Origin: Tetrahymena thermophila SB210
Lineage: Eukaryota; Ciliophora; Oligohymenophorea; Hymenostomatida; Tetrahymenidae
Length of the DNA stretch: 64,000 nt
Direction of reading: 5' to 3'
Assembly: GCF_000189635.1 (NCBI RefSeq)
Contig: NW_002476317.1
Span: forward strand, 310,001 to 374,000
Of this stretch, positions 13,072 through 58,308 are shown piece by piece. The translations under genes were made by a program, and so were the position numbers. Numbering within the stretch: the stretch's first letter is position 1; each line of letters begins with the position of its first letter. The notes under the pieces were generated by a model. It saw only the letters and a program-made list of their open reading frames with translations. It had not been told where the DNA came from and searched no databases.

Positions 13072-14010
13072 GAAATTAATATAAGCCAATATATAACTTA
13101 GGCAATTAATACATTCAAGACAAATAAAAATTGGAAATCTTAATTTAAATAAATTTCATTCTAATTTATTTTTTTCATTCCAAAAAGTGATAAATTAATT
13201 AATTTTTTTAATTAATCAATTATTAATTTACAATTTATTTTTTAATTAAATAATTATTTATTTATTTACTGTTTATTTTTAAATTAATCAAATAATTTTT
13301 TTTGAGATTAAAAATAAGATTTTTAATACTTAATTAATTTAGCAAATTTAATTTTTAAATAAAAATATAATAGAAATCTTTTTAAATAATAAGTTTAAAT
13401 AGTTAAAAAATTATTTATTTTTATATTTATTAGGATTAATTCAAGTTTCTTTAAATTCATTTTATTAAAAAGTTTAATTATTAATTTATAAAATAAAAAT
13501 AATTATGTTAATTTCAAAGATTTTAATGAATTAGTTGATTTCATTCTTTAAAGTTTAGAGTAACTTTAATTAATGCTCATTTTTGAATTTTTATTGTTGA
13601 TTAATTTTTATGCTTTATGATTTCTTTTTATAAATTGAATTCTAGATTTTAAAGATCTTAGATTGTTTTATGTTTTTGTTATAAAATTTGAAATAATATT
13701 CTATAAGTTTTAACATGATTATTTTAAATTATGTATTAGATTTGCAATTGATGTCATTAACTGCTCCTCATTAATAAAAAGATTCTATTATCTCAAAAAG
13801 ATTCTTTTTAAAGTAAGAATATTAAGTGTTTTAAGAAAAGAGAAATGATGTAAGAAGTGATTTCTTTCGTATATCTAATTAGAAATCAACACTTTATCTA
13901 ATTTAAAACTAACATATCTGATTCATCAAAACCAATTAATTATTCAAGATAATTAAACATTATTAAAATAGTAAAAACGTAATAAAAAACTCAGCATTAT
14001 AATAATAAAC
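13072..14010. other. AT-rich spacer between divergent genes
   Basis: About 0.94 kb between two divergent starts. It is almost pure A/T with many TTAATTAA-type strings near 13180-13280. It must contain both promoters, but no element can be named. Confidence 0.55.
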
Positions 14011-15188
14011 ATGAGTTTCAATAACACATAGCTAATTCTTAAGCAAAAGCCAGGCAGTGACTTCCCTTAAAATGTGAATATTTTTGAAATTAAGAAGTCA
14101 GAAGTTCCAGAATTAAAAGATGGATAGTTTTTGATTAAAGTATATTTTCTCTCTATTGATCCAATTATGAGAGTTTGGATGACAGGAGCACCAACTTATC
14201 TACCTACTCTTAAACCAGGCTAAGTTATGCATAGTTATGGTGTAGGCGAAGTAGTACAAACTAAAAACGATTCTTGGAGAGTGGGTGATAAATGTGTTAC
14301 AAATTCTGGGATTTAAGATTACTGCTTAATGGATGAGTAGAGATAAATGTTTTGCTTCAAAATTCCACATAAAACACCATTAGATAAATTGGCTTTTTAT
14401 CTTCCACTTTTAAATAATTGGTTTGTTGCCTATCAAGGTATAGTAGTGGATGGAAAAACTAAAAAGGGAGAAACTGTTGTCGTATCAAGTGCTGCAGGAG
14501 CTACCGGAATAGTGTGTGTACAATTGGCAAAATTAGCAGGTAAACAAATAAAAATTATTTACATACTAACATTTATTATTGCAGTTAAGAATAAAAAAAT
14601 TGAGATATGGCATCATATAAACTTATTTATTACAATATATTAGGTGCAAGAGTTGTGGCTATTGCTGGTGGAGAAAAAAAGTGTAGATTTTTAAAAGAAT
14701 AATTAGGAGCAGATGAAACAATTGATTACAAAGATACTAATTCAACATTCTTTTAGAAGTTAAAAAAAGCTTGTCCCAAAGGAGTCGATGTCTACTTTGA
14801 TAACGTTGGTGATGAAATGCTTGATGATGTCCTGAAAATAATGAATTTGCATGGAAGAATTTCCTTATGTGGTGCTACAAGCAATTACTCAGACCATAAA
14901 AATAGAAAAGGAATATCCAATTATTAAGTAACAATTAGTAGGAGAATATTTATCAAAGGTGTTTTAGCATCAGAAATAGGACCTATTGCAGATAAAGTAG
15001 TTCCTGAAATGCTTCAACATGTAAATTCTGGAGCAATGAAATCTATTGAAGTTTATTTTAATGGTGTAGAATCTGTTCCTCAAGCTATGCAATACTGCTT
15101 CTTAGGATAAAATGTAGGAAAAGTAATGATTAAGCTTTAAGCTGCCTCTAGCATCAGCTCATCAACAAGCACTGTACCCAAGCTTTGA
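14011..15188 (+). CDS. NADP-dependent MDR oxidoreductase, prostaglandin reductase/alkenal reductase type
   Basis: Zinc-free medium-chain dehydrogenase/reductase. Relatives (PTGR1/LTB4DH and plant double-bond reductases) use NADPH to reduce the C=C bond of enones and reactive aldehydes. Two exons, 14011-14539 and 14644-15188, with a 104-bp phase-1 intron that falls right after the Rossmann helix; 357 residues, about the family length. Visible signatures: SIDPIMRVWM near residue 48 (the family's DPYMR-type motif), KPGQVM, the nucleotide-binding loop AAGATGIVCVQLAKLAGARV around residue 161, and YFDNVGDEM at the family's DNVGG position, here with Asp for the second Gly. The catalytic-zinc cysteines of alcohol dehydrogenases are absent. 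The C-terminal SSISSSTST-like tail extends slightly past the domain. The exact substrate cannot be told from sequence. Confidence 0.88.
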
Positions 15189-16145: not shown

Positions 16146-18107
16146 ATGGACAAAAACTTTTTGAACATCCCTTCATATATTGAAGATCCCTCCTATCGGT
16201 AAATAAAATATATTATCCAATACTAGCTAAAATGATATTGCTCTTCAAAACAATTAAAAGAAACTAATTTTACCTGTTTTTTAAACGGATTGTTTCAATT
16301 TTATCCTCAAATGAATAAATTATATTCATTATTTAGATGATAAAGTGTATGGAAGAAATATGAAGAGAAAGCACTTAGATTAGCAAAATTAAATAAATAA
16401 TTTTAATATTAAATAAACAAGTTACAAGATGCCTAAAATGATCTTAAAGATCGAAGGTAAAGGAAATGGTATCAAGACTAACATTGTTAATATGTAAGAA
16501 GTCTCTAAAGCTCTTAGAGTTCCCACTGAATGTAATAAATCAATAAAATGCTTTTATTATCACATTTTACAATAAAAATAATTTTGAATCAAATCATCAA
16601 ATTAAAAAGTCATAAAATCGCTCTAAAAAACATAAATATGAGGATAAGTTTTTGTACTGCAATCTACCAAACAAACTCAACAACAATATTTATTCCTGAT
16701 CCAAAATTTTGATTAAAAATGGAGATTTAATAAATAATTTCTAATTTATAAAAGATCCTTTGAAGTTTATGGGTTTCGAATTGGGTTCTCAAATTATTTA
16801 CAAAGAAAAGGGTAACGATGTTACTACTATCATTAATGGTGCTTTCAAGGTAATTACTCTTATTATTGTTTTTTTTCTTTTTATAGTTATCTACCTACCT
16901 TGATAGCTATTTTTTTTAAACTCCTAGTCAAGTATATAATTTGTCTATAAGATATTTCTCAAAAATTAAGAAAATCATACACAAAAAAATAATTAAATAG
17001 CTAATCTTATGAATATATTTATTTATTTAGTTATTAGAAAATCGTATCATGCACAATTATCTAAAGCCTAATTTATTTGATTGAAAAAAATTATTATCAT
17101 ATTTAAAACCTTATTCTAAAAAATAAACAGGAAGATATATTGTAAAAGCAATTAGATAAATTCATTTAAAAGTATGTTTTATGTCCTAAGTGCACATATC
17201 CTGAATTTGTATTGAGAGTTCGTTAAGGTTTGGTTAGTGGTAAGTGTGATTCTTGTGGTGAACGTGCTAAATGCGATAATGCTCACAAGTTTGCTGCCTA
17301 TATTGTAAAGAATCCCCCAAAAACCAAAGGTATTAACAAGGAAGAAGAAGACGATAAAAAAGATAAAAAAGTTGCTGCAACTGTTCCTTCCACAACTGTT
17401 ACTAAGCCAGTTAAAGAAGAAAAAGATGTCAATTTGAATATTAAAAAACTTGAAGCTTCTGATTTGACTCTTGTTAGTGAAGAACTTGCCAAAAAAATTT
17501 AGCTTCTTACTGAAAGTATTAACAGTTAAAAGCAAGAAAATGGTGAATTCACTGAAACTGATATTTCTCAAACTAACATTGTTAAGGAAATTAAAGATAT
17601 GAACATATAAAAAGGACTTGAAAGCTAAGTTGCTCACATTCTTTTCTAGTCTTTATTTAGCGTTAATATTGCTCATGAAGTATAAAATAATGCCGAAGTT
17701 CTCAGTAAGACTTTTTCTAAGCTTAAAATTCCTAATCCCGAACTTGAAACTATAATGAACATCAGTTATCTCTTATTTAAAACTTACAATGAAAAGCAAG
17801 ATTTCACTCCTTACGTTCCTACAATTTTAAAGTACTTTTATGATGCAGATTTGCTATCTGAAGATTTCTTAAAAAATTATGCCGAATCTAAAATTAATTT
17901 GTCTGAACATTACTTATACGATGCTGAGCGTATAAAGAAGTTTGCTGAAGCTGCTTAACCTTTCTTAGATTGGATTCTGTATTTATTTTATTTTTGCTTA
18001 CTTATTATATATTTAACAAATGAATTTAAAAAAGAAATGCTGAAGAAGATGAAGACGAAGAAGGTGAAGAAGAAGAAGGAGAAGAAAAAAAAGAAGAAAG
18101 CCAATGA
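16146..18107 (+). CDS. EIF5: Translation initiation factor eIF5
   Basis: GTPase-activating protein for eIF2 in start-codon selection. Five exons: 16146-16198, 16422-16531, 16755-16849, 17131-17978 and 18035-18107; introns 223, 223, 281 and 56 bp; 392 residues (human 431). The first 53-base exon supplies the N-terminal arm, and the splice re-creates PSYRYKMP, the family's FYRYKMP motif with the catalytic Arg (here R18). The conserved KIEGKGNGIKTNIVNM follows. A C4 zinc ribbon has C104, C107, C125 and C128. A lysine/acid-rich linker leads to the C-terminal W2 HEAT domain (about residues 225-375), which binds eIF2-beta and eIF1, ending in FLDWIL and an acidic tail encoded by the last exon. Starting at the in-exon ATG 16429 would lose the arginine finger, so 16146 is preferred. 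Confidence 0.95.
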
Positions 18108-19163
18108 ACTATATTTAATAAATGAATTTAATTAATAATAAAGTTTTAAAGTTTTTTTTGTCAATGTTTTAAAATTTTATATTATTGAAGTTTCATTTTA
18201 AATTACTTTATTTAAAACAAATAATTTTATATTTTTCAATGATAATAAATATATATCATAAAGAATAATAAAATAACACTTCTCTTAAGAAGAAATTTAA
18301 TATAATTATTCTTGAAAATATTATCAGCAACTTTTATTGAGGTAAAATCATATTTGTTGATTGGATTTAAAGTACTACAATATATTATTTTTTTTAAGTA
18401 AAGCTTTTTTGCTAATTCAGTAAGCTTAAGTAAAAATTTTATTTCTCAAAAATAATTATTGAAAAAAAACATTTCTTAACATGTTTCTAAATTTTCTTTA
18501 TTTAATTTTATTGATTAAATAAATGAGAATATATATATGAATAAATAAATATCTATTTATTCAATTTAGAAGATTGTTAGTATTTTATTGATAAATGTTG
18601 TGTAAATAGATATTAATTTGAATTAACAAATAAATTATAATGCTTGAAATCAATCAACAGATATAAATAAATAAATATCTAAAATTAATTTGTTAATTTA
18701 TAATCCATAGTAACATATAAAAATATAAAAATAAAAAATTTTTTCATTTAATTTATTATTGGTTATTTTAATATATTAGTTTAAAATAAATATTTTAGTA
18801 TTTTATACTCTAAATAATGAATAAAATATTACTAGTGTAATAATGTTAAAGACATAAATCAGTATGTATTTTTAACTTTATAATCAGATAATTTTTGGTA
18901 AAAAATAAATAGCTTAAGTAAAATGATAACCAAAAAATAAGAAAAAACTATAAATAGAAGTTATCAAAAGATGGTTGGATATTCAAATCCACATAAAACA
19001 GAAGGAGATTGGTTTTTTTTTTTGAATGATTTTAAGATATTAAAATACGTTTAGAATTTAAATAGTATTAAATCAGAAGATACATACACATTTAACTGAA
19101 ATGAGCATTGAGTACTGTATATTTATAAATTATATTGTGATTTTTAAATATGAACAAAGTAAA
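18108..19163. other. Convergent AT-rich spacer with one doubtful 58-codon frame
   Basis: About 1 kb between converging eIF5 and eS4. Mostly A/T tracts. A frame at 18923-19099 (58 codons, containing KMVGYSNPHKTEGDW) looks somewhat coding but has no homologue I recognise and abuts an 11-base T run; it could be a small gene or a fragment. Not called as a gene. Confidence 0.4.
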
Positions 19164-23897: not shown

Positions 23898-24816
23898 TTT
23901 TATGAGTTTTCTTACCTTTAAAGTATGTTAAGTTAATTTTTTGAAGTTATAATAATTTATATGAATACCAGAAATTTTTGCTAATTATTTATAATAATCT
24001 AATTTGTTAATAAAGATTAATAATATCTATAATTGATTTATGAAAGAATGAATGAATAAATCAATCAATCAATAACAAATTTTATTAAAATTTTTTAGTA
24101 AATCTTTAAGCACACAAGATAAATTTCTCTTGAATTTTAAATAAATGCAAGCAATTTATTCGCAATACTTCTAAAATATAAATAAATATAAACATAAACT
24201 CAAAATTAATTTTTTACCAATCACTCTTTTTGGAAAGATTTAGTAACTTAAATTAAAATACTGAATTTTATCTTAACATTATTTTGATAATTTTCTTTTA
24301 ATATCTATCTTTCATACCGACATGCATTACTCATTTGAGTTTTAGAATTTTGTGGTGAATAATATACAATTAATATTGCTCCTAAAAATATAATTTGCTA
24401 AATTAAAAAATACACATTTTTTTACAGTTTGCTCAAAGAATTTTTAAGAAATTAATTAAAAAATAATTTTAAATATTAAAAATAATTATCAAAAATTTTA
24501 TTTTTTAAAGTAATATTTGGAATTTAAAATAAATTATATAACAAAAATTAAATAATAAATTTATGATAAATTTTCTAATTTTCATTAAGGTATTATAAAT
24601 TTTGCATTTTGACTTTACTTTTGTGAGGTAAAACAAATTACCTATTGAGAAATTTCTTAGTATTATCGCGACATAGCATACTGCTTTTTAAAAGATATTA
24701 ATTAAGGAAAGGTGATGGAACAAAAATCTCAAATTTAATTAAAAAAACTACTAAATTTTAGTAATAGAAAAAAATACTAAAGAGAAAAAAATTGTAGAAC
24801 ATAACATAAATTTGAA
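23898..24816. other. Spacer with weak minus-strand coding-like segments
   Basis: Mostly A/T-rich. On the minus strand two joinable open segments near 24305-24380 and 24040-24180 read YYSPQNSKTQMSNACR and NKLLAFIQNSREIYLV with a plausible splice between them. No ATG could be found in frame, so no gene is called; they may be a 5' extension of the neighbouring minus-strand gene or chance. Confidence 0.3.
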
Positions 24817-25854
24817 ATGTAGAACATTTAATACCTAAAGACATTTTATCCAAAAGCTACAGTTCTTAAAAAAATTCCAATAGTTCAGTTTTAAAAAGAA
24901 GAGAGAGTTTATATTAGAAATGATGAGGAATTGAGAGATAAAATTATTGGAATGAGAAAAAGGTAATAGTAATCTAGTGTAGATGTTGTTACTGATTTTG
25001 ATGGGACTATAAGCTCTTTTTATGATGATCAAAGAAGAAATGTTTCTGCTTCTTTTGGGATATTTAGGGAGTCTAAATATGTTTCAGCAGAGCTTTGCAA
25101 AAAGGCTAATTCTTTATTTGAATATTACCACTAGTTTGAGACTTCTAAGTAATACCCTTTTGAGGTTAAAAAAAAAATGATGGATGAATGGCTGGCTGAA
25201 TCTATGAAATTAATTCTCCAAAATAACATAGACAGTGAATGGCTTTAGAATATTATCAATGATAATGTTTTTGCTTTGCGTTATGGATTCGATACTTTTT
25301 TAAAGTACAGCTATTCTAAAAATCTTAATTTTATTGTAATTTCCGGAGGAATCCAAGATGTTATATTCTACATGATGAACTAAATCATGAATTTAAGCAA
25401 CTATAAAAATTTCAATCTGATTGCTAACAAAGTATTTTATGACTAAAATGGTAAAGTCATTGGCTCTAGCGATTAGTTAGTACACTCACACAATAAAGAA
25501 ATATTGCTCAATCGAGCTGACTACCCATAATTACACTCAAGCTGTATCTTATTAGGTGATATGCCTCACGACAGCTTTATGACATAATACGCTTCCTACA
25601 CTAATCAAATAAAAATAGGATTTGCAAAAAATGAATCTGATATAGCTAATTATAAAAAACGTTATGATATAGTTCTTCATAATCAAGGCAGTTTTGTAAG
25701 TATTGAGTATTTAATGAGAAAAATAATGGATTCTTAAGAACCTATTCCTGAAGATCTTCATAGTAAAATGAAACTTGTTGGACCTTAACTCTCTAAAATC
25801 ATAGAGGATTTAGAAGCAAAAGAAAAAAATATTAATGTTTCTTTCTCCACATGA
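24817..25854 (+). CDS. Cytosolic pyrimidine 5'-nucleotidase (UMPH-1 / NT5C3 family)
   Basis: HAD-superfamily phosphatase that dephosphorylates pyrimidine monophosphates (UMP, CMP) in nucleotide salvage and turnover. Single exon of 345 residues; an in-frame TGA lies upstream and ATG 24817 is the first start. HAD motif I is DFDGTIS with nucleophile D60 and acid/base D62 (the family usually has DFDMTLS). Motif II is FIVISGGIQD, motif III the lysine in SHNKE, and motif IV LLGDMPHDSFM with the Mg-binding aspartates. The cap-domain stretch EVKKKMMDEWLAES corresponds to the family's EEKYPYMVEWYTKS. The order, spacing and length match NT5C3; the N-terminal about 50 residues are an extra polar leader. 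No intron is needed. Confidence 0.88.
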
Positions 25855-42726: not shown

Positions 42727-45349
42727 ATGTCTAAAATACCTGTGTAATTATTAGATAGATTAGAATTAAATATAAAATTTGCTATCGATGATATTTAAAA
42801 GGAAAAGAGGTAATACATCAACAAACACATATAGAACTCATTAAACAATTACTTCTTAGAAAATTACTGTGTCCTTGACCTTAAAAAAAAGTTTGAAATA
42901 TACAGTGGCCGCTAAATAAAAAATTTGATTTAAGAAAAATACTCTTTTGCAAGTCAATTTAATAGTTTAAATCTAAATTTCGCAACAGATTAACATTCAA
43001 GTCTTAAAAAATATTATATTTTATTGCTAGGCTTTCTTGAGGAGCATGTAGCCAATGGAACTTTAGAAATTTACAGGGAAGCTATGCTAAAAATACTTAA
43101 TGAAGAAACTCCATCTTATTCAGAGTCTGAAATTTCTATTGACCATTCTTAAGAGTGGATTTCGCCTTTCATATTTTATAATAATGACTCAGATAAAATT
43201 AATAAGTGGGTATAGTTGCAGTGGAAAAAGCTGATCGCGTTATTTGTTTTGCATCATTCTTATTACCCTAAAATCGAAGCTATCTACTAAATATGGTTTG
43301 ACATATTTCAAAATAGAATTGTAGATGCATCAACATAGAAAAAAAAGAAGCCTGAAAATAATCGCCCATACAAGTACTAAGGTTTGCCTTATGTATCTAA
43401 TAGCGATTTTTATTCTTCTTAGCCTTTGGTTGTTCCAAAAAACGATGAAATATCACAGGCTTAATAAAAGAAATTAAAATTATTTAAATCCCAGAAACTC
43501 CGTTCTCAGGATTAGGAAAATGGAACCTAACAGGAGAATAAAGAATAAAAAGAGTCAGAGTAAATGCTAAAGCAAACGAAATACAGGATAACACTAATCA
43601 ACTAAAAAACTTAGCAAGCTTTAGGCGAATTAGATAATTCAAGTATGGGAGAAAACAATGATATGAAGCGTGCAAAGAAGGAGTAAAGCTTCAGAAAGGA
43701 ATATGGTATATTTAATTATAAATCTAATATTAATTTATTGATTGATTGACTAGATAGAGTAAATTCTGTCTATAAAGCAAAAAAGAATTATAGTACTATC
43801 AAATAAAAATATGTAAATAAATAAATAAAACCCTATCTATACTCTTATTAGATTTTTAAATAAGCGATCAATCACTTTTTCTAACAAATTTCAAAATAAA
43901 TTCCACAAACTAGATTAAAAGATCTACAGCTTAATTTTCTGACAACATTAATTCACTTTATTTTCGATCTAATTTAATATTTTCTTTTAATTAATATAAT
44001 AGAAACATAGAATATTTCTGATAGTTAAGTTATAGAAAAAAAGCCATACAAAAAGCTTAAATAGGATTCAGACTTGCCTTTAAAAGCTGCAGATAGTAGC
44101 AATAATTCATTAAACAGCATGGTTAGCATATAACTAATACAAAACAATAATAATCCACAAGCTATGAAGAGTGCTTGCTAATAAAAAGATTCAAAAGATT
44201 ATAGAAACATTTAAGTTATTTGCTAATAATCCATTATAAAAGAAGACAATGATATACATTTAAGCTCATAAAATTTTAAACAATCTAAAAAAGTATAAAC
44301 CAATACACTATCTAAAGACTATTTCCCACAGCAGGCTCAGTCAGCTTTTTCAAAATACAATAAAAAAGTTCCATTTAGCAATCAATAATAAGGTAAATTT
44401 TTTTGTCATAAATTATAATTGCTCAATAAATATTAGTCTTTCTAACATCAGTAATAGATTTAATTTATCTTTAATCGTATATTAAAATGCAAACAAATAA
44501 ATCTATAAATTTATATTTTTTTCTTCTCAGTATCAACAGTCATAATATTTTGAGTAAAATTAATAAATTTATTAGTGGTTAATAAAATAAAAGCTAAATT
44601 TCATCAACTTTTTCTTTGAAATTTTTGCTATTTGACTCTTTTTCATCCTCAATTTTATTAAGATTGAAAGATTCTACTCTCTCACTAAATATAAATTTCT
44701 ATCTTTGAATTTGCGTTTGTTAATAAATATTCTTTTAAAAACATAAGCTAAACAAATCATTGATTCAAATACTAGCGAAGAAAAAATCGTAATCAAAAAA
44801 GAATCGAATCAAGTGAAATAAGAAACTAATAATTCTCTCTCCCCAAAAGCTGTTATTTCAATAATATCACCAAACAACTTACAAGATTCCTAAAACACAA
44901 CTAATTAAGATATTCCATCCAAATAATTTATCAAAAACGAAGATTATGATTCAAGTAATTGCTTACAAGAAAAATAAAATGAGTAGAGTACTTGTGATCA
45001 CAGTCAAAATATCCTCTAAAGTCCAATTAGTTAAGCACCACAGATTACATTTAGCACTATTCCTGTTAATAGCTTTTAGTACTAAGTAGGTAGTATTATA
45101 AATCCTTAACCAACAGCAGCACTTCATTATTCTTAATAGCCACTTCAAGTGATGTTTTAATAATTCCTTCCACATTAATAAATTAATTAATTTATCCACC
45201 CTAATCAAATATCATCCAGTCAATAAGTAATTCCATTAATCAATGTAAATAATATTCCTATTGTTCATGTTCCAATTAATTACATCAGCATGATATAGCC
45301 TAACTGTGCTCCTACTACAGCCGCTTTCGTAAATATCTAAAAATTTTGA
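42727..45349 (+). CDS. Paralogue A of an unrecognised family: conserved N-domain plus Q-rich tail
   Basis: Three exons, 42727-43705, 44003-44392 and 44748-45349, introns 297 and 355 bp; 656 residues with consistent phases. The first about 220 residues form a conserved, helical, folded-looking domain shared with the gene at 56119: QYINKHIQNSLNNYFLENY, KKKFEIYSGRQIKNLI, LLLGFLEEH, then WVQLQWKKLIALFVLHHSYY and AIYQIWFDIFQNRI followed by KKKK. The rest is low complexity, rich in Q, N, S, K and P. The last exon is proline/isoleucine-richer (SPISQAPQITFSTIPVN). No domain recognised. Q-rich tails with a small N-terminal domain are common in transcription or RNA-granule proteins, but that is only an analogy. 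An alternative cassette exon could lie in the second intron near 44530-44554. Confidence 0.75.
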
Positions 45350-47600
45350 AATATTAGCACAAAGAGTTGCTTACATACCCTTCAAAAATTTAAATTTATG
45401 TGGAATATTTTAATAATTAATAAATCTGTAAATTAAAACATAAATACTATTTCTAATTGCAAGCATGAATACAAAGCAATTTGAACTAAAAAATAAATCT
45501 ATAGTAATTAATTATAATAGTTTTAATGCAAATGTCTTTATAATTAATAAAAATTTTAATATTAAAAAATAAAAATTATTTAAAATTAATAACAATTATA
45601 ATAACAATTTAAACATATATTAAATATAATAATACTAAATAATCACAACTACTTATTTAATTTATAAAAGTTTAAATATATATTTCCTAGTATGTTTTTA
45701 TCCTTTTTATTTCTTAGATTCTATAATCAATTATATTATATTCTTTATTACTGATTGTTTTATACTTATAAATTATTACATCCACCTTCATTTATAAAAA
45801 AAAGCAGTTAATCTAATTTTAACTTAGGCCTTTTCAGATTAATTATTTATTTATTTATTTATTTATTTTTCTTCTAATATTGTTATACTTTCCTTTTATT
45901 ATTGCTAAAATTTATATGAAAATTATTCAGTAGTTTACTTAAATAAAATAAAGTTAGATTTTCAATAAAAATTTTATACATTCTGTAACAAAAGTAACTA
46001 AATTTTTCAGTACCATAAATCATTCTTGTTAATTTAGAAATATATTAAAATTGAAAAATTAAAAGGTTGATATAAGAATATAGAAGAAGTCTAATTTCTT
46101 CTAAAATAATTTTGGTATTCCATTTAATTTTTAATTTTTATTGGCTGTAATAAAAACACTCAAATAAAATATTTTCTTTTGTTAAAAAAAGATATCTTAT
46201 TTATTTTATCAAAAAAAAAAAAAGATGAAATAATAGTAAATATTATAGAAAATCACGCTAGTTTTTTTAAAAAATAATAAATCATTATTTTTATTTATGT
46301 TGATGTTAATATAATTGTATGTTTATATACTACTAATTATCATAAAGTATAAATATAAATATTTAAAACCATATTTTTGAGAAAGAAACAATAAGTTTCT
46401 AATTGTGAAAAAATTTAATTTAAAAATCAGATTTGATAAAAAGTTTATCATTTATGGTTTAATGAAATGATTTAATAATATTAATTTTTATAATTATTAA
46501 AAACTATATTAAAATTAATTTCAAGTAAATTAAAAAGTTATTTAGATTATTACTTAATTTATCACAAGAAAAAATTTATTGAAAAAAGAAAATGCATTAA
46601 AAAAAATAATTAAATTTAATGGTAAAATAATAGCAATTAATTGGCTATTTATAATATATATTTATAATTTTGAATAAATTAATATTAATAACATTTATTT
46701 TAGATATAATTTTTAAGATGTTCAGTTTTGTTGAAAAACTATAAATTACTTTTAGAAAAAGAAAAATAGCCTCACAAATATAATCTAAAAGTAAATTGAT
46801 TTTTTAAAATTTGTAAAATAGTAATGAAAATAAGCATTTAATTTTTAAAACTTAGCAAAAAATAATAAATTATTGATATTCTTTTGTAATTATTTATTAC
46901 TATTAATTTAAGTCTGCAATCAAATAAAAAAAATATTTATTTTAGAAAGCTAATGAATAAAGTATAAATTAATATTTAAACACATAAAAATATGAAAAAA
47001 TACAATAGAAAAATATATTAGTATCTTTCTCTATTTTAAATTTTAGTTTTTTTCTTGTTCCATAAAAATTTATTAGCATTCAATAAACTATAAATTTATT
47101 TATTTATTTTAGATTATTATTTAAACAAATGTTAATCACACAAAAATAATAATAAAAAATGTATATTTTATATTAAGCAATTTTTATTTTTATATTATTT
47201 ATTTAGAATCATTTAATAGAAACATCATAAAAAATTATTAAAAAGTAAAAACTTTAAATATATTTTACCTCAAATTTTAATCTTGTAGATAAAACTTACT
47301 AAATTTTTGATTTAACCTTTTTATTCAACTAGTTTAATACTTAATAGAAATTATTTTTAATAGTAAACTTTATATTACTAAGCATTAAAATTTAAGCTTC
47401 AGAAAACAGTGATGTGAATAGATTTTTCAAATAAAATAGAATTTAAGGATCAAAAAATTAAAAAATGATAAAAATAAATTAATGGATTTTCATATTTTAA
47501 ATTTTAATAAAATAATTAATTAAATCAATAATAATTTTCTATAATTTATTTCCATCACTATTAAAAATTACTTTTTTACATTTATAGTAATTTTATCTCG
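45350..47600. other. Very AT-rich gene-poor DNA
   Basis: Nearly pure A/T sequence with long TTTATTTATTTA runs (for example 45848-45870). No coding frame, RNA structure or repeat family was recognised. Confidence 0.55.
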
Positions 47601-50350
47601 GGTCATCATGTTAAAAGGCAATGAGAGCAGTTATTTTGAGAGTTTTATCAAAAAAGAGTGCATTTTCAAACTAATTTGGGCTAAACTTGAAAATAAATTT
47701 CATAAAAAATATATTTCTTCCTTGAAATAATTTTTAAGGATACTAATTCATTTGAAATTAATTCCTTTTCAGCTATAAAATAGATTATTGTTATTAGTTA
47801 AAACAAAAAATATATAGCTACGCAATCACTACATATATTAATGATGTTAATAAAATATTATTTAATTTTTGTATTTTATTAAGTATATGTTGAAATATTA
47901 TTCTTGATATTATATCATCCATTTTCTCTAATGAAAATGCAATTCAACTGATTATGTTCAACTGAATCAATTAAGAGTTAGAAATTCAATGCTAATTGAG
48001 ATTAATTTTCTCCAAAGTTGATTTAATTTAGAAGTTAACTCTAATAGCTTGGTATAAGAAGAGTGCATTAAGATTTTTTAGTATCAAGTAGTTGGTATCT
48101 AAAAAAGGGTTAATATTGAAGAGATAACAGCCTACAATTGAGCTTGTAAATTGACATTTAAGTTGAAGTTTGATAAGATATGAGTGAAGATTAAAATAAT
48201 AAAATAACTAAATTTAAACATTCAATTAACTTACTTATTTAATATAAGAAAGAGGAACTAATTGTAAGCAAGATCATCACGTGAAGTTTGTCTTTAGGAC
48301 TTCTAGCATGAAAAAATAATCAAGATTACCTTAATAAAATAATGAAAGATAGAGATGAGAAGAATTAAAGAGAGGATATTATTCATCAGCTTTAGACTGT
48401 TTAAAAGCTTTTAGTGAGTTCTTATCTTGTTCATTATAATAAGAGAGTTATAAGTAAACAAAAACTTATAGTTTAGGGTCAATTCATGAACTTCCCTTAG
48501 AAAGAAGGCAATATATATTTATATTAACTAATACAAAAAGGCTAATTGAGGGATTTATTTAACAAATAGGAAAGGGTCATATTAAAAGTTCTTTCTTCTT
48601 TCAAAGGACAAGGTTGGATTACCTTATATGGCTTGTATAAAGGGTAAGGTCAAAGATGGGTACCAATATAATAAGAGTTGACTGATTAGGGTATGTCTCT
48701 CCTCTTAATGTATTACGTTATACATGAGAAAATAGGGAAAGAGATTAAAGTTCAGATATGTAGGTGGAAAATATGTTCGAGATTAATTCTTAATTAATTA
48801 ACCTTATGGGTTGAGTTAATTAAAGATTTAATATTGGGCATATTAAAGGGTATTAACATAAAGAAATAGTTTTTAATTGGAATCAGGCTTGGAACCAAAC
48901 CTTACCACATGGACTGTTAGGGTAAAAATCTGCAAAATACCCTTATTGTTATAGTCTTAGATAAGGTCTTGAATGGCCTTTATCTTAGTAAAGATGCTCT
49001 TAGGTATACTAATCCTACTAAAATTTTAAGGCTATAGGTAAACATTGAATAAAGTGCTAAGAATGTTGGGTGGGTTCATTACGAGATTGGGACAAGCTTA
49101 TATCAAGTTTTTGATCAGTTTTCTTTAAATTTTAAAGACCTTAAGAGTAATGGTTGAATAATTCATTAATGTATCAATAAGTGATATCATTCTAATGGGA
49201 GCTTATATGTTAAGAACCTTCATCTTCCTATAGATAGGTTAGGGTTTATAAATAAAATAGATAAATTAAATTTATGTTATAGTAGAATCTTATTTAACTC
49301 ATTCAAAAAACTATTGAATTTCTGTTTAATTCTTCATAATTATTAGTTTTTAAAGTGTATTTGGTCATAACTTACCTATAATTCAAGATCATTTTTATTA
49401 ATATTTTATTAAACAGCAGATGGTAAATTCTGCTAAATAAATTATTTTTTTGGAATCCTTGGTCAAATATATTATTAAATTTTAATTTAATAAAAAAATT
49501 AATAAATAATCAAATAATTTTTTCATTTAAAAAAGATGATCATTGAAGCATGTCTTGATGAAACGACTAGAAATAGTAGATTAAATGTACATTATATAGA
49601 ATGTAATTTGAAGTTTAATTTAATGTATCAAAAATAACACTTAAAAAAATAAAAATGAGGGCTCTAGCTAAAATTTAGATAAACTGATGTAATAATTTTT
49701 AAAAAGTGAATAAATATAAAAGATTGATCAAAATATCGCAAGAAATTAATTCCCATACGAATTAGAAACATATGATACCGTTTACATGTTTCAATATTCT
49801 ATTTATTTTTATGTATCTATAATAGTCAGATATACTTTGAAATTACTTATGTCCCTAGGTTAGAGTCAATATGAGTTATAGCCTAAAAAGGAGAAAATTT
49901 TATTCAAGCAGACAATTGTTAAGAAAGGTACAAGCCAATATTAGGATAATTTGAAGGTTAACAAATATTTATTTAAGGAAAATATTACTGCACTTCATGA
50001 GGGTAAAAAGTTTTACAGATTACCAACTAGAATCATAGATGTATTTTATTTATGATATCTTTTAGAGTCTAAGACTCGTACTCGAGGCAATATATTTAGT
50101 ATTAAGAATACATATTTACTATGTTACCATAGAGTTTATAGCTGTAAAGACTTGAAGACAGAAGTCTTAAGGTTTAGTTATAAGCATAATTCTATACATT
50201 CGGGAATGTGGCTTCAATAAAATAAGCTCCAAAGCTTTTATAGAAAAGGTTGACAGTTTACTATATCCTGATTTTATCTAATGCGCTTTCATTAGTGTTA
50301 TCTAGTCTCTGAATTAAATCCTTAATGAATAAAGCCATTCTAAACCAGAC
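47600..50350 (+). pseudogene. Decayed coding island of unknown identity
   Basis: A GC-richer island inside the emptiest part of the window. Plus-strand segments read like protein: for example ESSYFESFIKKECIFKLIWA near 47.6 kb, VQEECIKIFQYQVVGIQKRV near 48.0 kb, a frame of 271 codons from 48342 (WITLYGLYKGQGQRWVPIQQ), and ENITALHEGKKFYRLPTRII near 50.0 kb. The segments lie in different frames without convincing splice sites. An overlapping minus-strand frame of 333 codons (48222-49223) also exists, but its codons have few G-starting codons and it is probably the shadow. The island looks like an old gene or element copy that is broken in several places, or less likely a gene with many unseen introns. 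No family could be assigned and no terminal repeats were found. Confidence 0.45.
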
Positions 50351-53300
50351 ATTTAAACATTAAATTAAATTTCACAACCATATCATATTAAAATATATTA
50401 TATTTTTTACTTAATAAGATATTTACTTTTGAATTTCATACTCCTGAATAAAATGTGAGCATTAACTACCTTTTTTTGTTTTTGAAAGCCCTGTATAGAT
50501 TGATTTTTGAATAATTAATGCATGTAACTCCAAAATTTACTACTATTTAAAATTAATATTAGAATGAATTATTTTTCAAAATAATTAGTAAAAAATTTTT
50601 ATGATTTATAACAAACAAAAAACGGCTTGTTAACTTTTTATGTGATATTAAAAAACTTTAAATTTAGAATAATTAAAAGAAGAAAATTTCATTTATTAGA
50701 ATCTACAACTAATAATATATTAATTTTAAAAACTTAACAAGCTCAAACCTCGTTTAAATTTAATATTAATTAAATTTCAAATAAATTTATAGTTCTTCGG
50801 AAATTTTGTTTTTTATTGAAATTAAAATTGTATATATTCATTAAAAAAACATAAATTTAATTTTGATTACAGATGAGGCATAATTTTTAACAAAACAAAA
50901 TACTTTGGACAATTTTATTTAAATCTTATAATTTAATTTAAAGCCTTAATTGTTTTTAATAAAAAATATTTGTAGCTATACAAAATTCAATATATAAAAA
51001 GATATAATTAGTTATTAATAGTGAATTTAATTATTTAAAAAGCTTAGAGCTTTAGAAAAATAACCTATATTTTGCAAACTGTGCAAAGCGTATAAATATA
51101 AAGTAAATATAAATTGTTTTTCGGCTTCAAAAATGGAGTCAAAAAATAAATTTGTTAATATATTACAAAATAAAAAATAAATTAAATTTAATTAATATAG
51201 AGCAGGAAATAAATAATTTTTGAAAATATTTGCAATATGTTTTATTTAATTCTTTTTACTTTTGTTAATTTTATGATTAATTTATTCATAAATTATACTG
51301 TTTTTTTTCTTTTCTATAACATACATTTAAATATAATTTAAATTTAAAAACTGAAAGTAAGACTTTTCTTAAAATAAACTTAAATTCAATGTTATCAAAT
51401 CTTAATTTAGATTTTATGCTAAAAAAAATATTTTATTTTTTAAATAGCATTTAAAATAATTGGATAATATAAATTATCATTTTAATTAACAGTTAGTCAA
51501 ATATTGAAATTGAGTAGGAATTTTTTAAATATTAAAGTTATTAGATCTTAAAAACAAATTAAAAAATATTTAAATAATCTTTAATTTTTTTTGAAAATAT
51601 TTAAAAATTTTCTTATCAAAACAGTTTTTAATATGAAACTGTTTTTTTAATTTTAATAAAAATTAAACTGAATAATATGTTTGTTCATATTTAATAGTAT
51701 TATCAAGAATACTAAAAAATATACTAAAATATTATTTATTGCATTTTTTTGGTTTTTATGAATGATTATTTATAAAATTTAAGACATAAAACTTATTTTC
51801 TTTCTTCAACTACAGGTGGTTGGCACATTTATGAAAAATAAATTCAATTGTCTTATCAAAAAATTTATTGATTTACAATTTTATTTGTATATTTAAATAA
51901 TTCTATATTGTTAAATTCTCCCAAATGATAATCTTTTTTATTCTAAAATACTTTTTAGAACATTTTTGACACCAATCAAATGAGTAATTATTATCAATTT
52001 GAGCTTAGCTCATATCCCATAAAAAAGTAATACTGCTCTTTATAGCTAAATTCTAAATAAATAATTATTTTTATTTTCGATTAGGAAGTATATTTTATTT
52101 TTTATGAGTAAAAATTTAAATAAATTATCAAAAAAGAAAAATTTTCAAATGGAAAAGATAAAATTTTAGTTATTACTGCATTTTTAAATAATTAAATAAA
52201 ATTTTAGAAATCAAAATTCAAAAGAAATTTTCTTAATCTTTTCATTACATAATTTTAGATTAATAAAAAAGCAAATAAATTTAAATAAGAATTAGATTAT
52301 AAATGTCACTATTAAAATAATTCTATTTACTTATTAATTAAGGCTAGAAAAGGTCTTTTTTTACAGTTAGGTCAACACATAAACTTTTAAAAGACATGAA
52401 TTTATATGCATATTTAGTATTAAATTTTCATCATTTTTTGTATTTATAACTATCTTTACAATTTACACTTTATTTATGGATTACTCTTGAAAAGAAGAGG
52501 GAAGAAAATGATTTGGTATGGTATTAGAAGATTTTTAAATAATTTCCTTTGCTAGTGTAAGAGAGAAATTAGTTGTGAAAAAACAATCAAATAAAATAAA
52601 CTATTTGTTAAAATTTAAGTGCGATATTCTCTTCGTCAACAACAATAACAATAGAGAAAATAAAAATAATTAATTAAATTCAGTTTTCAAATTGAACCAA
52701 TCAAATTCTTAATCTATCTATTTAATCTTTCATGTATTAATATTATTCTAGGGGAAAACTTCTCCTGATCTTTTAGAAAACTACATAATAATTGTATTAA
52801 AGCGTTTTATACATTTTTAAATATACTTTTAAATGAAAGTCTTATTATTTTATAGGTGTCTTATGTTACATTTGATAATAAAATTTACTTTATTCATTTT
52901 ACAAAATTAATGATAACATTTTGTTAGTTATTTATTTAAATTCAGTTATTTAACTCCAATAAACTGAATGGGTGACTGCTAAATTTTGTCTTTTTATGCT
53001 TTTTCTTTCATTTTTGAATAGTCTAGGGTTGTTTTATCTAAAAATGACCATTATTTTTTTGAAAAATTTACATTTACAATTATTTATCGATTAAACTAAA
53101 ATGATCATAGACAAATAGTTTTTTTTTTGAAAGTGCCTTAAATAAAAAGCCATTTTAAACTATATAGTATGCAAAAAAAACTGTATAAAATAATCTATAA
53201 ATAGTTTGATCCAGTGAAACAATTAACTTTTCAGAATTAAAATTCACCTTCATGAAAGATCATTTTTTAAAAAATTTAAATTTAAAATCACAATCAGTAA

Positions 53301-54948
53301 AAAAAAAAGACGTGAAACTGATGCTTAGATCAATAATCCATGAATATAAATAGCGCTAGCAGTAATCTCAATTATGTAATCTAATATGAACGCACAATTA
53401 CTATGTATAGAATACTTTAAAAATTATTTTCGATGTGAATTAAATGAATAACTAATTTAAAAGAAAATTTCAAACAATATATTTAAATAATTTTTAAGAT
53501 AATAAAAGAAGAGGTCTATCTGGTATTATTGAATAGATAAGAAAAACCTATGATTTTTATTTCAAAAAATAAAAGTAAGAATTTAAATAAACTTATAAAA
53601 AAATTTGAATTATTGTTTACAAGAATTTATTATATTAAAATAAATAAGTAAAAGATTGTTTCCCTTTTTGTATTGCTTTTTATTTTTATTATCTATCTAA
53701 AGAAATCAATAAACTGTAAACTAATTTACAATCAAAACATGGGGCAGCATTATTTTTATTTTTGATATTATAAGCTTAATTCATGAATTATTTGCTAAAT
53801 AATTTATATCACTAGCTATATTTATGAAATGAAGGGATAAAGGCCATCAAAACTCCATAATTTAATTGTAAGCTTTTTTATGGGTATTAGTCAAACTTAC
53901 TCAACAATTAATTACTTTTCATCCATACATACATATTTCAAAAAACGTCCAAAAAAGTAATAAAAAAACTTTAACAAAATATGTGAAAGCATTTCTTAGA
54001 AAACAGAGGTTTTTGTAATGTATTTAAACCCAGCAACAAGATTTTTAATCCATATTAAATATAAAATTATATAAAAATCGAGCAAGTCTAAAATATAACT
54101 AATTGAGGTTAATATTTAATTATTCACCTTAAAAAACACATTTTCGTTAACATTTAGAGCTTATGGTAAAAAAATGTTAATAAAAAATGAACCTATTGTT
54201 ATAATAAAGTCACTGATTGTGTTTTAACAAAAAAAATTGAAAATTTTAATGTAAATTTTTAATTTTCTTCACTCGGAATGTAATTGCTCACGTTTAAAAT
54301 TTCTGAAATAAGATGAATTACGAAGGAGATTAAGTATTAATTAAAATTGATCTATTTCCCTTTAATGATTAACTTTTATTATTCTGTTCTATATTGTGAA
54401 AAGCATAGAAGCTAATTTTCTTAAAAAATAAATAAATTTAAATGAAATTTTACCAAAAAACACTAATTTTGTTTTTAATTGAAATTATTAAGATCGAAAT
54501 ATAAATATGGTAATAACTTAAATAAAGACTTTTAAAATGTGTTAAATTTTTTAAGTGTGATTTGCTCATTGATACAATAATATATATTTTTACATAAAAG
54601 ATACATCTGATAATTAATTTTATCATTAATTTATGATATTAAGCAATATAGATTTTAAAACACTTTTTGCCAAAAATTCAGGTTGATACTATACAAAATA
54701 TACCTTGCAATTCAATTCTCAAAAATTGACAAGAAATTCAATCTTGTTGTTGATTTGGAAAAGTTAAAAAACTATATATATTTGTTTTGTTGGAGGTTTA
54801 TTTAATTACTCAGGAGTTGAAAAATCAGTTAATTGAATAGAAATGCTCAATAATTAAACTTCGTAGCAAAATACAAATACACATAAAATGATAAAACAGC
54901 AGTTTTTTAATGAAAATTAACATTTTTTTATAAAATATTTAAAGCACT
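50351..54948. other. Very AT-rich gene-poor DNA
   Basis: About 4.6 kb with no coding-like frame, RNA gene or recognisable repeat. Composition is extreme A/T with long homopolymer runs. Confidence 0.5.
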
Positions 54949-55353
54949 ATGAGATAATATGAAACAATAGCGGTGAATTAATAAGCTTCAGAATTCGATG
55001 GTTGTTTATTTGAAAAAGAAGTTAGAAATATTATTAGACGCTTAATCGAGGAAGGGGTAAGTAGATGTAAAAATTATATATTTGCTTATATGATGAATAT
55101 TGAGATGTAAATAAAACTTAATTAAAAATAAGATAGATAGGAAACTAAAAGAAATATTATCTTGTCATTCTAATTACTTTTATTTTTCTTTTTCATTTTT
55201 GATTTAAATTAATTTTATTAACATTAGAAATAGACTCTATTGGTAAAATCTAATAACCTAAAATAGATTGATTGTATCTTTTCCATATTAAAGAAATTTA
55301 TCAGGAAGACTGACTCTTTGGTTTTATATTAAGATGATTCTGCTTTTTGCTGA
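54949..55353 (+). CDS. 77-residue protein of unknown function
   Basis: Two exons, 54949-55056 and 55228-55353, with a 171-bp intron that has a clean GTAAGT donor and a CATTAG acceptor, phase 0. The product begins MRQYETIAVNQQASEFDG, continues CLFEKEVRNIIRRLIEEG and ends in exon 2 with LKKFIRKTDSLVLYQDDSAF and Cys. It is a balanced, soluble-looking sequence with alternating helix and strand character, unlike the biased composition of the surroundings, which supports a real gene. No family was recognised. It lies about 770 bp upstream of paralogue B on the same strand. Confidence 0.55.
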
Positions 55354-56118
55354 AGAGTGTAAATTTGTATATTTTAGTAAATTTTTACTTTCAAATAAAT
55401 ATTCATTCGGTACTGGGTTTTAAAACTCATTAACTTAATCACAAAATTTTATTTGTTATTTGATTACGCTTACAAAATAAATTAAATGATTACCCTTCTT
55501 ATTCCTTTCAAAGGATTGATAATCTTGACGCTAATTTTGTAATTGAAATATATTCAAAACAAATAACATTAATAATTATTAAGTAAAAAAAAATAATACT
55601 AAACATTAAAATTATATCGCAAATATTGGAAATCACAGGGTAATCCTGAATTAATAAAACAATCAATAAATCGATCAAACAAATAAACAAAAAACAAATA
55701 AAAAAACAATTAATTGAAAGAAAACAAAACAAAAATCAAACCTAATTAACTAAATTTCTATCCTCAGCTTATATCAATCTAAAGCAAGCAAGCAATCAAA
55801 CAAATAAATAAATATTAAGACATAGATAGATAAGATATTTTGATAAAAAAACTCAAATACATTTACAGTAATACAAACAGATAAACAACATAAAGAGATA
55901 TATTGTAAGAAGATAAATTTCGTAATTAATAATTAAATAAAAAATACATTTCAATCATTTTTTATTGAAACAAAAAAAATAAGAAAAGTATTAATTTGTT
56001 TACTATTTTAGAATAACATAAAACCTAATTTATTAGAATCTTTAACGCACTTAAATCTAAAGAAAACAAAATAAAAAAAAATCTATTTATCCCTACTAAG
56101 ATATCCTTTTCATAGCAG
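55354..56118. other. Spacer upstream of paralogue B
   Basis: About 0.77 kb, A-rich on the plus strand, with CAAATAAACAAA-type runs between 55670 and 55830. Probably 5' UTR and promoter of the gene at 56119; no named element. Confidence 0.5.
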
Positions 56119-58308
56119 ATGTTATAGTCAACTGTTGATGAAATTAAGAATAATCTTTTGTACGTGTTGGATGAGGTCGTACATTCACGTCAATATCTCA
56201 ATAAACACTTCTAAAATTCCATGAATAACTATTTCCTTGAAAATTATGCCACTCTCCCTTGCTTAAAGAAGAGATTTGATACCTAAAGTGGCCGTCAAGT
56301 CAGAAAAGAAATTTTTGAGAAGTACAATTAAATCTAAGAAACTGAAGGTAAAGTCGATGGTAATCTTAAGTGTTTTTTAATAATGCGCGGATTTATTGAA
56401 GAGCATAAAATCAACAATTCTTTGAATGATTATCGCTAGTCTCTTATGTACCTTGTTAGTGCTACTGGTTTAGACGCTAGTATAAAACACGGATCTGCTG
56501 AGTGGATCTCTTTGCAATGGCGTCGTTTATTCGCACTGATGGTTTTACATCATACATACTACCCAGAAGTATAAGGCGTTTACGAACTTTGGTATCATGT
56601 TTTTGATGAGCGCTTAATCGCTCGTGAACGTCAAAAAAAGAAGAAAGAAGAAGTCGTTTATAAGAAAGGAAAGTCTCCTTATATTATTTCTAGCAAACAA
56701 GAAGAAGACGAAGAGTCTACTTCTCCTTTAATAAAAGAAGCAGGAATAATCTCAGCTGCTGCAACAAGAAGCAAAGAGGGATCTCTATCTAGTATAGCAA
56801 CAAATGATGAATAGCTTACACAAAGCACAATAAATTCACCTAAAACTCCTCGCTCACTTATAAATATAGGCAATAAGAGAGATTCGAAGAGAGTTCAACA
56901 ATCTAAAAAGAGTCAAGTTAAGGTAGAATAGCAATCAGGAAGTGAACATGGAGAGGATGAAGAACCTGCTATTTCTAAGAAGAGATTTACTTAGGAGACA
57001 ATTATTCTTATGAAAGATCGCAGTAATTCAGATATAGAGCTTAAGTAGAGCAATTCCACTACTGTCTTAATAAAAAGCTCTTCTGAAATTTTAAATTAAA
57101 ATTTGGGAAATGAGTAAACGTAAGCTTATGAATAGAATAGTCAAAATGTTGAATTGAATTAATAAAAAAATCATCAATAGGATATTTAAGTATTTACTGG
57201 ATAATAAATATAGCAATAATCATAAATTGCTAACAATAACTTAATCTAAGCAACTTTCAATAGTGAAATGCCAAATAAGATGAATTCCTAACATAGTGAT
57301 AATCAAGTCAATTTTGAAAATAAATAATAATCAAATGATTACATAAACTCCTATGCAAATTAAAACTAGGAAAGTGTTCTTCATTAATAATACTATGACA
57401 ATTAAATTTAATAGAATTATCCACAATAAATAAGCTGTTCATAATAATACACTTCGAATCATCACTTACAAAACTAAATAGATTCGAACCAGCCTTAATA
57501 GGTGAAGGAATTCGATTAACTCGCATAACCTTCAAGTTCTTACTTAATTGAAAGGTAATAGAGCTGCAATGGATATTTTGGAGAAGAAACGTATACTCCT
57601 TATAATCAAGCTTATTACAACACATATGGGTAATTTAAAAATAACCTAAGCTCAGAATTTCATCAAAATGATTACTATTTAAACTGTAACCAGGAAAACT
57701 ATGCAAATTATTAATTTGAAGCATACAATAATGAAGAATTAAATAAACTTAAATTTGATTCTCAAGCACATCATTATACTAGCTAAAATTTAGACAGATA
57801 AAGGAGTAACTAAATGCAATTCAAGTGTGATCCTAATATTCAACACCATCAGTCATAATAGTAGTAGTATTAATAATATGATAATAATCGTTGCATTTCT
57901 AATAATTATATTAACGCACCTGTCAATTATCAAATATAATAATAAATATAGTAATAATAAACAAATACTCCCCACATTAGAGCAAAATAAAATTTCTAAT
58001 AATCTTAACAAAGCTACCCACTTCAAAACTGTAATCAAGTAAATTTTGATTATCCTCCATAAGACTCATCTTATTCTTCTTATTTAGATCATTAATCTGA
58101 TAACTAATACAGCTCATCTACTCCTAGCTCAATCAGCTAATCTGCTTCTTATTCTAACTCTCCAACATATCACAATGAGTAATAACAACAGCTTTATCAG
58201 TATAATTATTTCAACTAAAAGTATACTAACTATGATTAATACGATTAAAACTAACTCTAACATTAAAACTATCAATACTAACACCAATAACTTTACGATC
58301 AATTTTGA
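56119..58308 (+). CDS. Paralogue B of the same unrecognised family: conserved N-domain plus long Q-rich tail
   Basis: Single exon of 729 residues. Residues of about 20-180 are the conserved domain shared with the gene at 42727: QYLNKHFQNSMNNYFLENY, LKKRFDTQSGRQVRKEI, IMRGFIEEH, WISLQWRRLFALMVLHHTYY, VYELWYHVFDERL, then KKKK. The domain differs from paralogue A at many sites, but the spacing is almost the same. Codons here are richer in C and G (CGT, CTC, GCT) than in the tail. The tail from about residue 200 begins acidic and serine-rich and becomes extremely Q/N/Y-rich, with glutamine runs written mostly as TAA and TAG. Unlike paralogue A it has no introns, so one copy may have gained or lost introns since duplication. 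Function unknown. Confidence 0.8.

What the first reader, a model, noticed from the sequence alone, without database searches (positions are those of the whole stretch)
42727..58308. Unrecognised protein family: two diverged paralogues with a shared N-terminal domain and Q-rich tails
The genes at 42727 and 56119 share a domain of roughly 160-200 residues with near-identical spacing of motifs: NKH-x-QNS-x-NNYFLENY, SGRQ, FLEEH/FIEEH, LQW-x2-L-x-AL-x-VLHH-x-YYP, IW/LW and a KKKK end. The tails are unrelated low complexity. I know of no named domain with this pattern. One copy has three exons, the other none. The best-conserved pieces, LQW..VLHH.YYP and NNYFLENY, look like a buried helical core. 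Sequence evidence for the domain is strong; any role (for example in transcription or RNA granules) is speculation.
Basis: partly seen in the sequence, partly recalled or inferred. Interest (0 to 1): 0.75.

Follow-up and report, generated by a model that had tools for sequence, protein, structure and literature searches.

The report
Undescribed Tetrahymena protein domain family
Two neighbouring genes of a Tetrahymena-type ciliate belong to an undescribed family of about 42 gene copies that share a probably helical domain, usually followed by a basic stretch and a glutamine/asparagine-rich tail, an architecture that suggests nuclear gene regulators.

Summary
The genes at 42727 and 56119 share an N-terminal domain of about 165 residues (129 bits, 36% identity over 194 columns; z = 48 against shuffles). 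Their tails are alike only in composition. They are not a lone pair: searches of the window's own genome, a Tetrahymena-type macronuclear genome, find about 42 copies: 24 dispersed (one provisional) and 18 plus a fragment within 134 kb of contig C59. A reversed query finds none. No Pfam, PDB-sequence or Foldseek match stands out, but the fold tests are weak (two-sequence models, pLDDT 61.6 and 55.1). New here: an NLS-like basic stretch after the domain in 21 of 30, purifying selection on the domain (omega 0.16-0.23 in five C59 pairs) with looser tails (0.31-0.63 in six), and a tail motif NxI[FI][ED][ED] in 10 of 30. Best reading: nuclear regulators whose domain binds DNA or dimerises and whose tails recruit partners. 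Function is inferred; localisation and binding are untested.

The parts
42727..43705 (+). Gene A exon 1: shared domain (residues 9-199), KKKK stretch and start of the tail
   Evidence: profile hit at 42745-43365, 140 bits
42751..43323 (+). Shared domain of gene A, with a 17-residue in-frame insertion (PFIFYNNDSDKINKWVQ) absent from the 12 other members of alignment A1
43339..43350 (+). KKKK of gene A (residues 205-208)
44036..44392 (+). Gene A probable exon 2 (low-complexity tail); the acceptor could also end at 44002 or 44029
   Evidence: Splice-consistent frames only; no RNA evidence
44748..45349 (+). Gene A probable exon 3, ending at TGA (Q/S/N-rich tail)
   Evidence: tail composition
56119..58308 (+). 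Gene B: single open frame, 729 residues and TGA
56134..56619 (+). Shared domain of gene B (residues 6-167)
   Evidence: two-row AlphaFold2 model all-helical, pLDDT 61.6
56623..56673 (+). Basic stretch after the domain (residues 169-185, RERQKKKKEEVVYKKGK), NLS-like
56674..58305 (+). Gene B low-complexity tail (from residue 181: Q 19%, N 12%, S 12%)

Best explanation
Genes A and B are sister members of a large family of nuclear regulatory proteins in a Tetrahymena-type ciliate. Each has a compact, probably all-helical domain of about 165 residues whose best-conserved helix carries polar residues (N28-K29-x-x-Q32-[ND]33-x-x-x-N37-Y38). A lysine-rich stretch follows in most members, probably a nuclear localisation signal that may also contact nucleic acid. 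A long, faster-changing Q/N-rich tail comes last. The mechanism I think most likely: the helical domain binds DNA or dimerises on it, the basic stretch brings the protein to the nucleus, and the tail recruits coactivators or condenses at target genes. Paralogues diversify by duplication, with the domain constrained and the tail freer. Shown by computation: family, domain limits, conservation, basic stretch, selection contrast, local duplication. Inferred: helical fold (weak models), nuclear location, DNA binding, activation.
For: Family of about 42 copies with a conserved core. Of 30 members examined, 21 carry an NLS-like run in the 30 residues after the domain, against 8.4% of 5000 random tail windows; mean charge +4.8 against -1.0. 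Q+N is about 20-42% of the tail in 29 of 30; L037 has almost no tail in its open frame, and gene A was counted with exon 1 only. Domain omega is 0.16-0.23 in the five C59 pairs where it can be computed, tail 0.31-0.63 in six pairs. Both AlphaFold2 models show helices only. Precedent: Q-rich subunits of Tetrahymena SWI/SNF are suggested by their authors to act in co-activation (PMC5844071, passages seen).
Against: No match to any DNA-binding family over a Pfam cut-off, no PDB sequence relative and no fold match. Nothing tests nuclear location or binding. Q/N-rich tails are common in Tetrahymena proteins (recalled), so they are weak evidence. In 9 of 30 no NLS-like run was found, and in four (L017, L029, L036, L041) the stretch after the domain has net charge 0 or -1. 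The domain itself is not markedly basic (net -3 to +2) in 11 of 30 members, A and B among them. The domain/tail contrast is small in one pair (L032/L059: 0.23 against 0.31).
Confidence: 0.42

Rival explanations
1. Chromatin or transcription cofactor: the helical domain is a protein-protein adaptor (scaffold, or docking on polymerase or remodeller parts) and the proteins do not touch DNA themselves.
For: Helices only in both weak models, 11 of 30 members not basic in the domain, Q-rich cofactor precedent in Tetrahymena SWI/SNF (PMC5844071, passages).
Against: About 42 paralogues with divergent tails suit a family of specific regulators better than stoichiometric subunits (inference); no credible match to an adaptor domain in Pfam.
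Confidence: 0.28
2. RNA-granule or other cytoplasmic condensate proteins: the helical domain oligomerises or binds RNA and the Q/N tail drives condensation.
For: Q/N-rich tail composition.
Against: Basic stretch after the domain, NLS-like in 21 of 30; no RNA-binding family matched over a cut-off.
Confidence: 0.15
3. Fast-turnover family of conflict or recognition type (self/non-self, mobile-element derived), in which clustered copies arise and decay without one regulatory role.
For: Cluster of 18 copies plus a fragment on C59; three of those 19 matches contain a TGA. Species-specific genes of Tetrahymena are reported to show a high incidence of tandem duplication (PMC6564038, passages).
Against: Domain under purifying selection in C59 pairs (omega 0.16-0.23); 24 dispersed copies, many of them divergent; no confirmed relative in viral contigs and no PHROG hit for A exon 1 or B.
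Confidence: 0.1

Closest known systems
Lineage-expanded transcription-factor families (ApiAP2 of apicomplexans, KRAB zinc fingers; both recalled)
   Same: Many paralogues, one conserved domain, divergent low-complexity regions, dispersed and clustered copies (recalled for the known families)
   Different: No AP2 or zinc-finger model was among the Pfam matches here except one single-member, E 0.11 hit to a zinc knuckle; DNA binding is not shown
Q-rich SWI/SNF-associated Saf2-4 of Tetrahymena thermophila (PMC5844071, passages)
   Same: Ciliate proteins with glutamine-rich regions; suggested co-activation role
   Different: Reported to lack conserved domains outside the Q-rich regions; the genes here have a clear domain. 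Sequences not compared.
Homeodomain recognition helix (WFQN; recalled lead)
   Same: The local string K[WH]FQ[ND] in part of the family resembles WFQN
   Different: The string lies in the second predicted helix of a 165-residue domain; no homeodomain hit in the Pfam scans

Membership tests
Any Pfam-A family | Score over the curated cut-off | tested here: not met
   P0001 (gene A exon 1) and P0002: one family at E 0.36. 13 and 25 domain sequences: each listed family hit by only one member, best E 0.0068 and 0.0012; cut-offs are not shown in those tables. 10 of the 28 other whole open frames: one sub-threshold hit, DNA_pol3_chi, E 0.0015, 19.1 bits against a cut-off of 25.4. Profile consensus: best E 0.036, below its cut-off.
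Homeodomain | 60-residue three-helix domain with WFxN in helix 3 (recalled definition) | tested here: not met
   No homeodomain model among matches; position of the string differs
Any protein of solved structure | Sequence-profile match to a PDB chain | tested here: not met
   Single sequences: none. Profiles: best E 0.52 (13 rows) and 0.12 (25 rows)
Any known fold | Structural match with a confident model | tested here: inconclusive
   Best Foldseek E 0.25 in PDB and 0.74 in BFVD, from a model of pLDDT 61.6; the model is too weak to exclude a known fold
Transcription factor | Nuclear localisation | not testable with these tools
   Only NLS-like runs, 21 of 30
Transcription factor | Sequence-specific DNA binding | not testable with these tools
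   None

The most novel reading that the evidence does not exclude
A ciliate-specific DNA-binding domain, unrelated in sequence to known ones, that founds one of the largest transcription-factor families of Tetrahymena, with a recently expanded chromosomal cluster sharing a tail motif (NNxIF[ED][ED]) that docks a common partner.
Probability: 0.22. Interest if true: 0.75.

Novelty: new variant of a known kind. Interest (0 to 1): 0.5.

Why it matters
If the domain binds DNA, it would supply a large set of candidate regulators for a model ciliate. It also gives a defined domain, an alignment and a list of paralogues with which a standing question, how a lineage builds its own regulator families, can be tested by tagging and knockout. 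If not, it is still a sizeable family without a Pfam entry in the copy searched.

Tried and rejected
Known domain: Pfam, NCBIfam, PHROGs and PDB sequence searches gave nothing credible (NCBIfam and PHROGs were given only P0001 and P0002). Known fold: Foldseek against PDB and BFVD gave only noise-level matches; the models rest on two sequences, and only the better of the two was searched. Relatives in prokaryote genomes and viral contigs: 38 and 53 pattern matches, none confirmed; these scans back-translate peptides and may miss genes with reassigned stops. Other ciliates could not be searched with the tools used. Chance: a reversed domain (checked letter by letter) finds nothing in the same genome at E up to 1, though the tool warns that an empty answer alone shows nothing; the shuffled domain never approached the real score. 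Hidden third copy in the window: none above noise. Gene A's 17-residue insertion as an unspliced intron: no splice choice that I tried by eye kept the frame (my reading, no script). Homeodomain, LisH and polymerase-CTD-binding resemblances were leads from memory; none appeared among Pfam matches. Literature: seven searches; listed were 20 of 200, 6 of 6, 15 of 15, 12 of 57, 10 of 10, 5 of 5 and 15 of 25 papers. No listed title or abstract opening describes this family. The TTHERM names of these genes are not known to me, so this is weak evidence that it is unpublished.

Full report
What was checked. The window lies in a 101-Mb, 445-contig genome with one ciliate telomerase RNA over the Rfam cut-off and CCCCAA arrays (overlapping matches to a 22-base pattern: 4512 forward, 4052 reverse; the capped list shows the start of contig C4 and, on the other strand, C4 near 465.6 kb; the tool's reversed control is the same pattern and so says nothing). 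Reading TAA and TAG as Q opens long frames. I take it as a Tetrahymena-type macronuclear genome; the species was not determined.

The observation. Genes A and B share a domain at E 4e-37, 48 standard deviations above shuffles. The tails do not align beyond composition. Gene A's three exons are plausible but not unique.

The family. A query with gene B's domain gave 14 places in 13 distinct genes, the weakest at E 3.2e-5, with a threshold of 10. Five further queries and one with a C288 copy extended this. By my tally over these calls there are 24 dispersed copies (C214 two, C115, C336 two, C122 two, C123, C130, C78, C418, C318, C424, C184 two, C162, C38, C288 two, C114 two, C442, C13, C65). C65 rests on E 1.1e-4 in one call, and C114:821k is the most divergent (long branch; E 0.0015, profile E 3.4e-17). 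On C59 between 133 and 267 kb there are 18 copies and one fragment; 16 of those 19 matches have no TGA and three have one. Weak matches on C338 (E 0.007) and C179 (E 0.9) were not counted. The reversed domain found nothing at E up to 1. Counts are lower bounds, as the tool says.

Alignment. Thirty copies for which DNA was held were aligned; the other 12 were seen only as matches. Conserved in at least 24 of 30, in gene B numbering: I9 (25), N28 (29), K29 (30), Q32 (27), N37 (24), Y38 (28), E41 (27), K84 (26), Y at 85 (26), L109 (28), K at 135 (25), L143 (24), W158 (30). Position 33 is D in 20, N in 7 and A in 3; position 39 is F in 21. The tree puts A and B together with 100/99 support. C288's two copies (100/99) and the eight C59 copies held (99/97) also group, while the neighbours on C336 do not and those on C122 are unresolved. 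Twelve of 27 inner branches are well supported, 11 are drawn open and several rows are long, so deeper order is open. Local duplication is thus one of the ways in which the family grew.

Anatomy. In the 30 residues after the domain 21 of 30 members have an NLS-like run, against 8.4% of random tail windows. Tails are Q/N-rich (29 of 30) and net negative in 22 of 30. A short tail motif, N-x-I-[FI]-[ED]-[ED], in 8 of its 10 members of the form INNxIF[ED][ED], occurs in 10 of 30 members: all eight C59 copies held, L005 and L008. Shuffled proteins give a mean of 0.19 members and a maximum of 3 in 200 rounds; relatedness of the C59 copies inflates the count. A DNA form of it (AAYAAYNNNATHTTYGARGA) occurs 26 times in the genome; 10 are on C59 between 133 and 259 kb, one is in L008 and 15 are elsewhere. 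The reversed control pattern occurs 12 times. Neither A nor B carries the motif.

Selection. For six C59 pairs, domain omega is 0.16-0.23 in the five where it can be computed (synonymous sites saturated in L026/L027); tail omega is 0.31-0.63 in all six. dS is about 0.8 or more in all but the closest pair, so only L035/L057 (0.16 domain, 0.42 tail) is firm, and in L032/L059 the contrast is small (0.23 against 0.31). These pairs are all from C59; omega was not computed for A and B.

Fold. Two AlphaFold2 jobs, each with two rows, gave models with helices only, pLDDT 61.6 and 55.1, pTM 0.55 and 0.54. The other four models of each run were at 46.0 or below, and the two models disagree in their helix limits. 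The helical nature is likely, the topology is not known.

Interpretation. The combination of constrained helical domain, basic stretch and freer Q/N tail, spread over many paralogues, is what a family of nuclear regulators would look like. The conserved polar residues N28, K29, Q32, N37 on one predicted helix would suit contacts to nucleic acid, but would also suit a protein interface. I put 0.42 on DNA-contacting regulators, 0.28 on cofactors, 0.15 on cytoplasmic condensate proteins and 0.1 on a fast-turnover recognition family.

Novelty. No Pfam family, solved-structure sequence or listed paper covers it, within the stated limits: no general eukaryote protein database, InterPro or ciliate database could be searched. 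A large lineage-specific family of this general design is a known kind of thing; the domain is an unrecognised one. The papers seen in passages are PMC6564038 and PMC5844071; all others only as search listings.

Noticed in passing
G000 C59:133-267 kb (outside the window): Cluster of 18 copies and one fragment of the domain, 18 of the 19 matches on the - strand; three of the 19 contain an in-frame TGA, so decay beside expansion is possible.
   Followed up: partly
G000 C59:246659-246678: A copy of the tail-motif DNA pattern whose nearest domain match is about 2.4 kb away, perhaps a truncated family gene.
   Followed up: no
L005, L008, L026, L027, L032, L033, L035, L042, L057, L059 tails: Short conserved tail motif NxI[FI][ED][ED], a candidate docking or activation motif.
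   Followed up: partly
window 42727-43705: Gene A has a 17-residue in-frame insertion (PFIFYNNDSDKINKWVQ); the flanking EWIS and its KWVQ look like a diverged repeat.
   Followed up: no
window 16642-18312, 24649-25851, 13861-14832: Ordinary neighbours: eIF5-like (PF01873, PF02020), pyrimidine 5'-nucleotidase (PF05822), oxidoreductase N-domain (PF16884) (the 17 other open frames scanned gave no hit at E 0.001).
   Followed up: no
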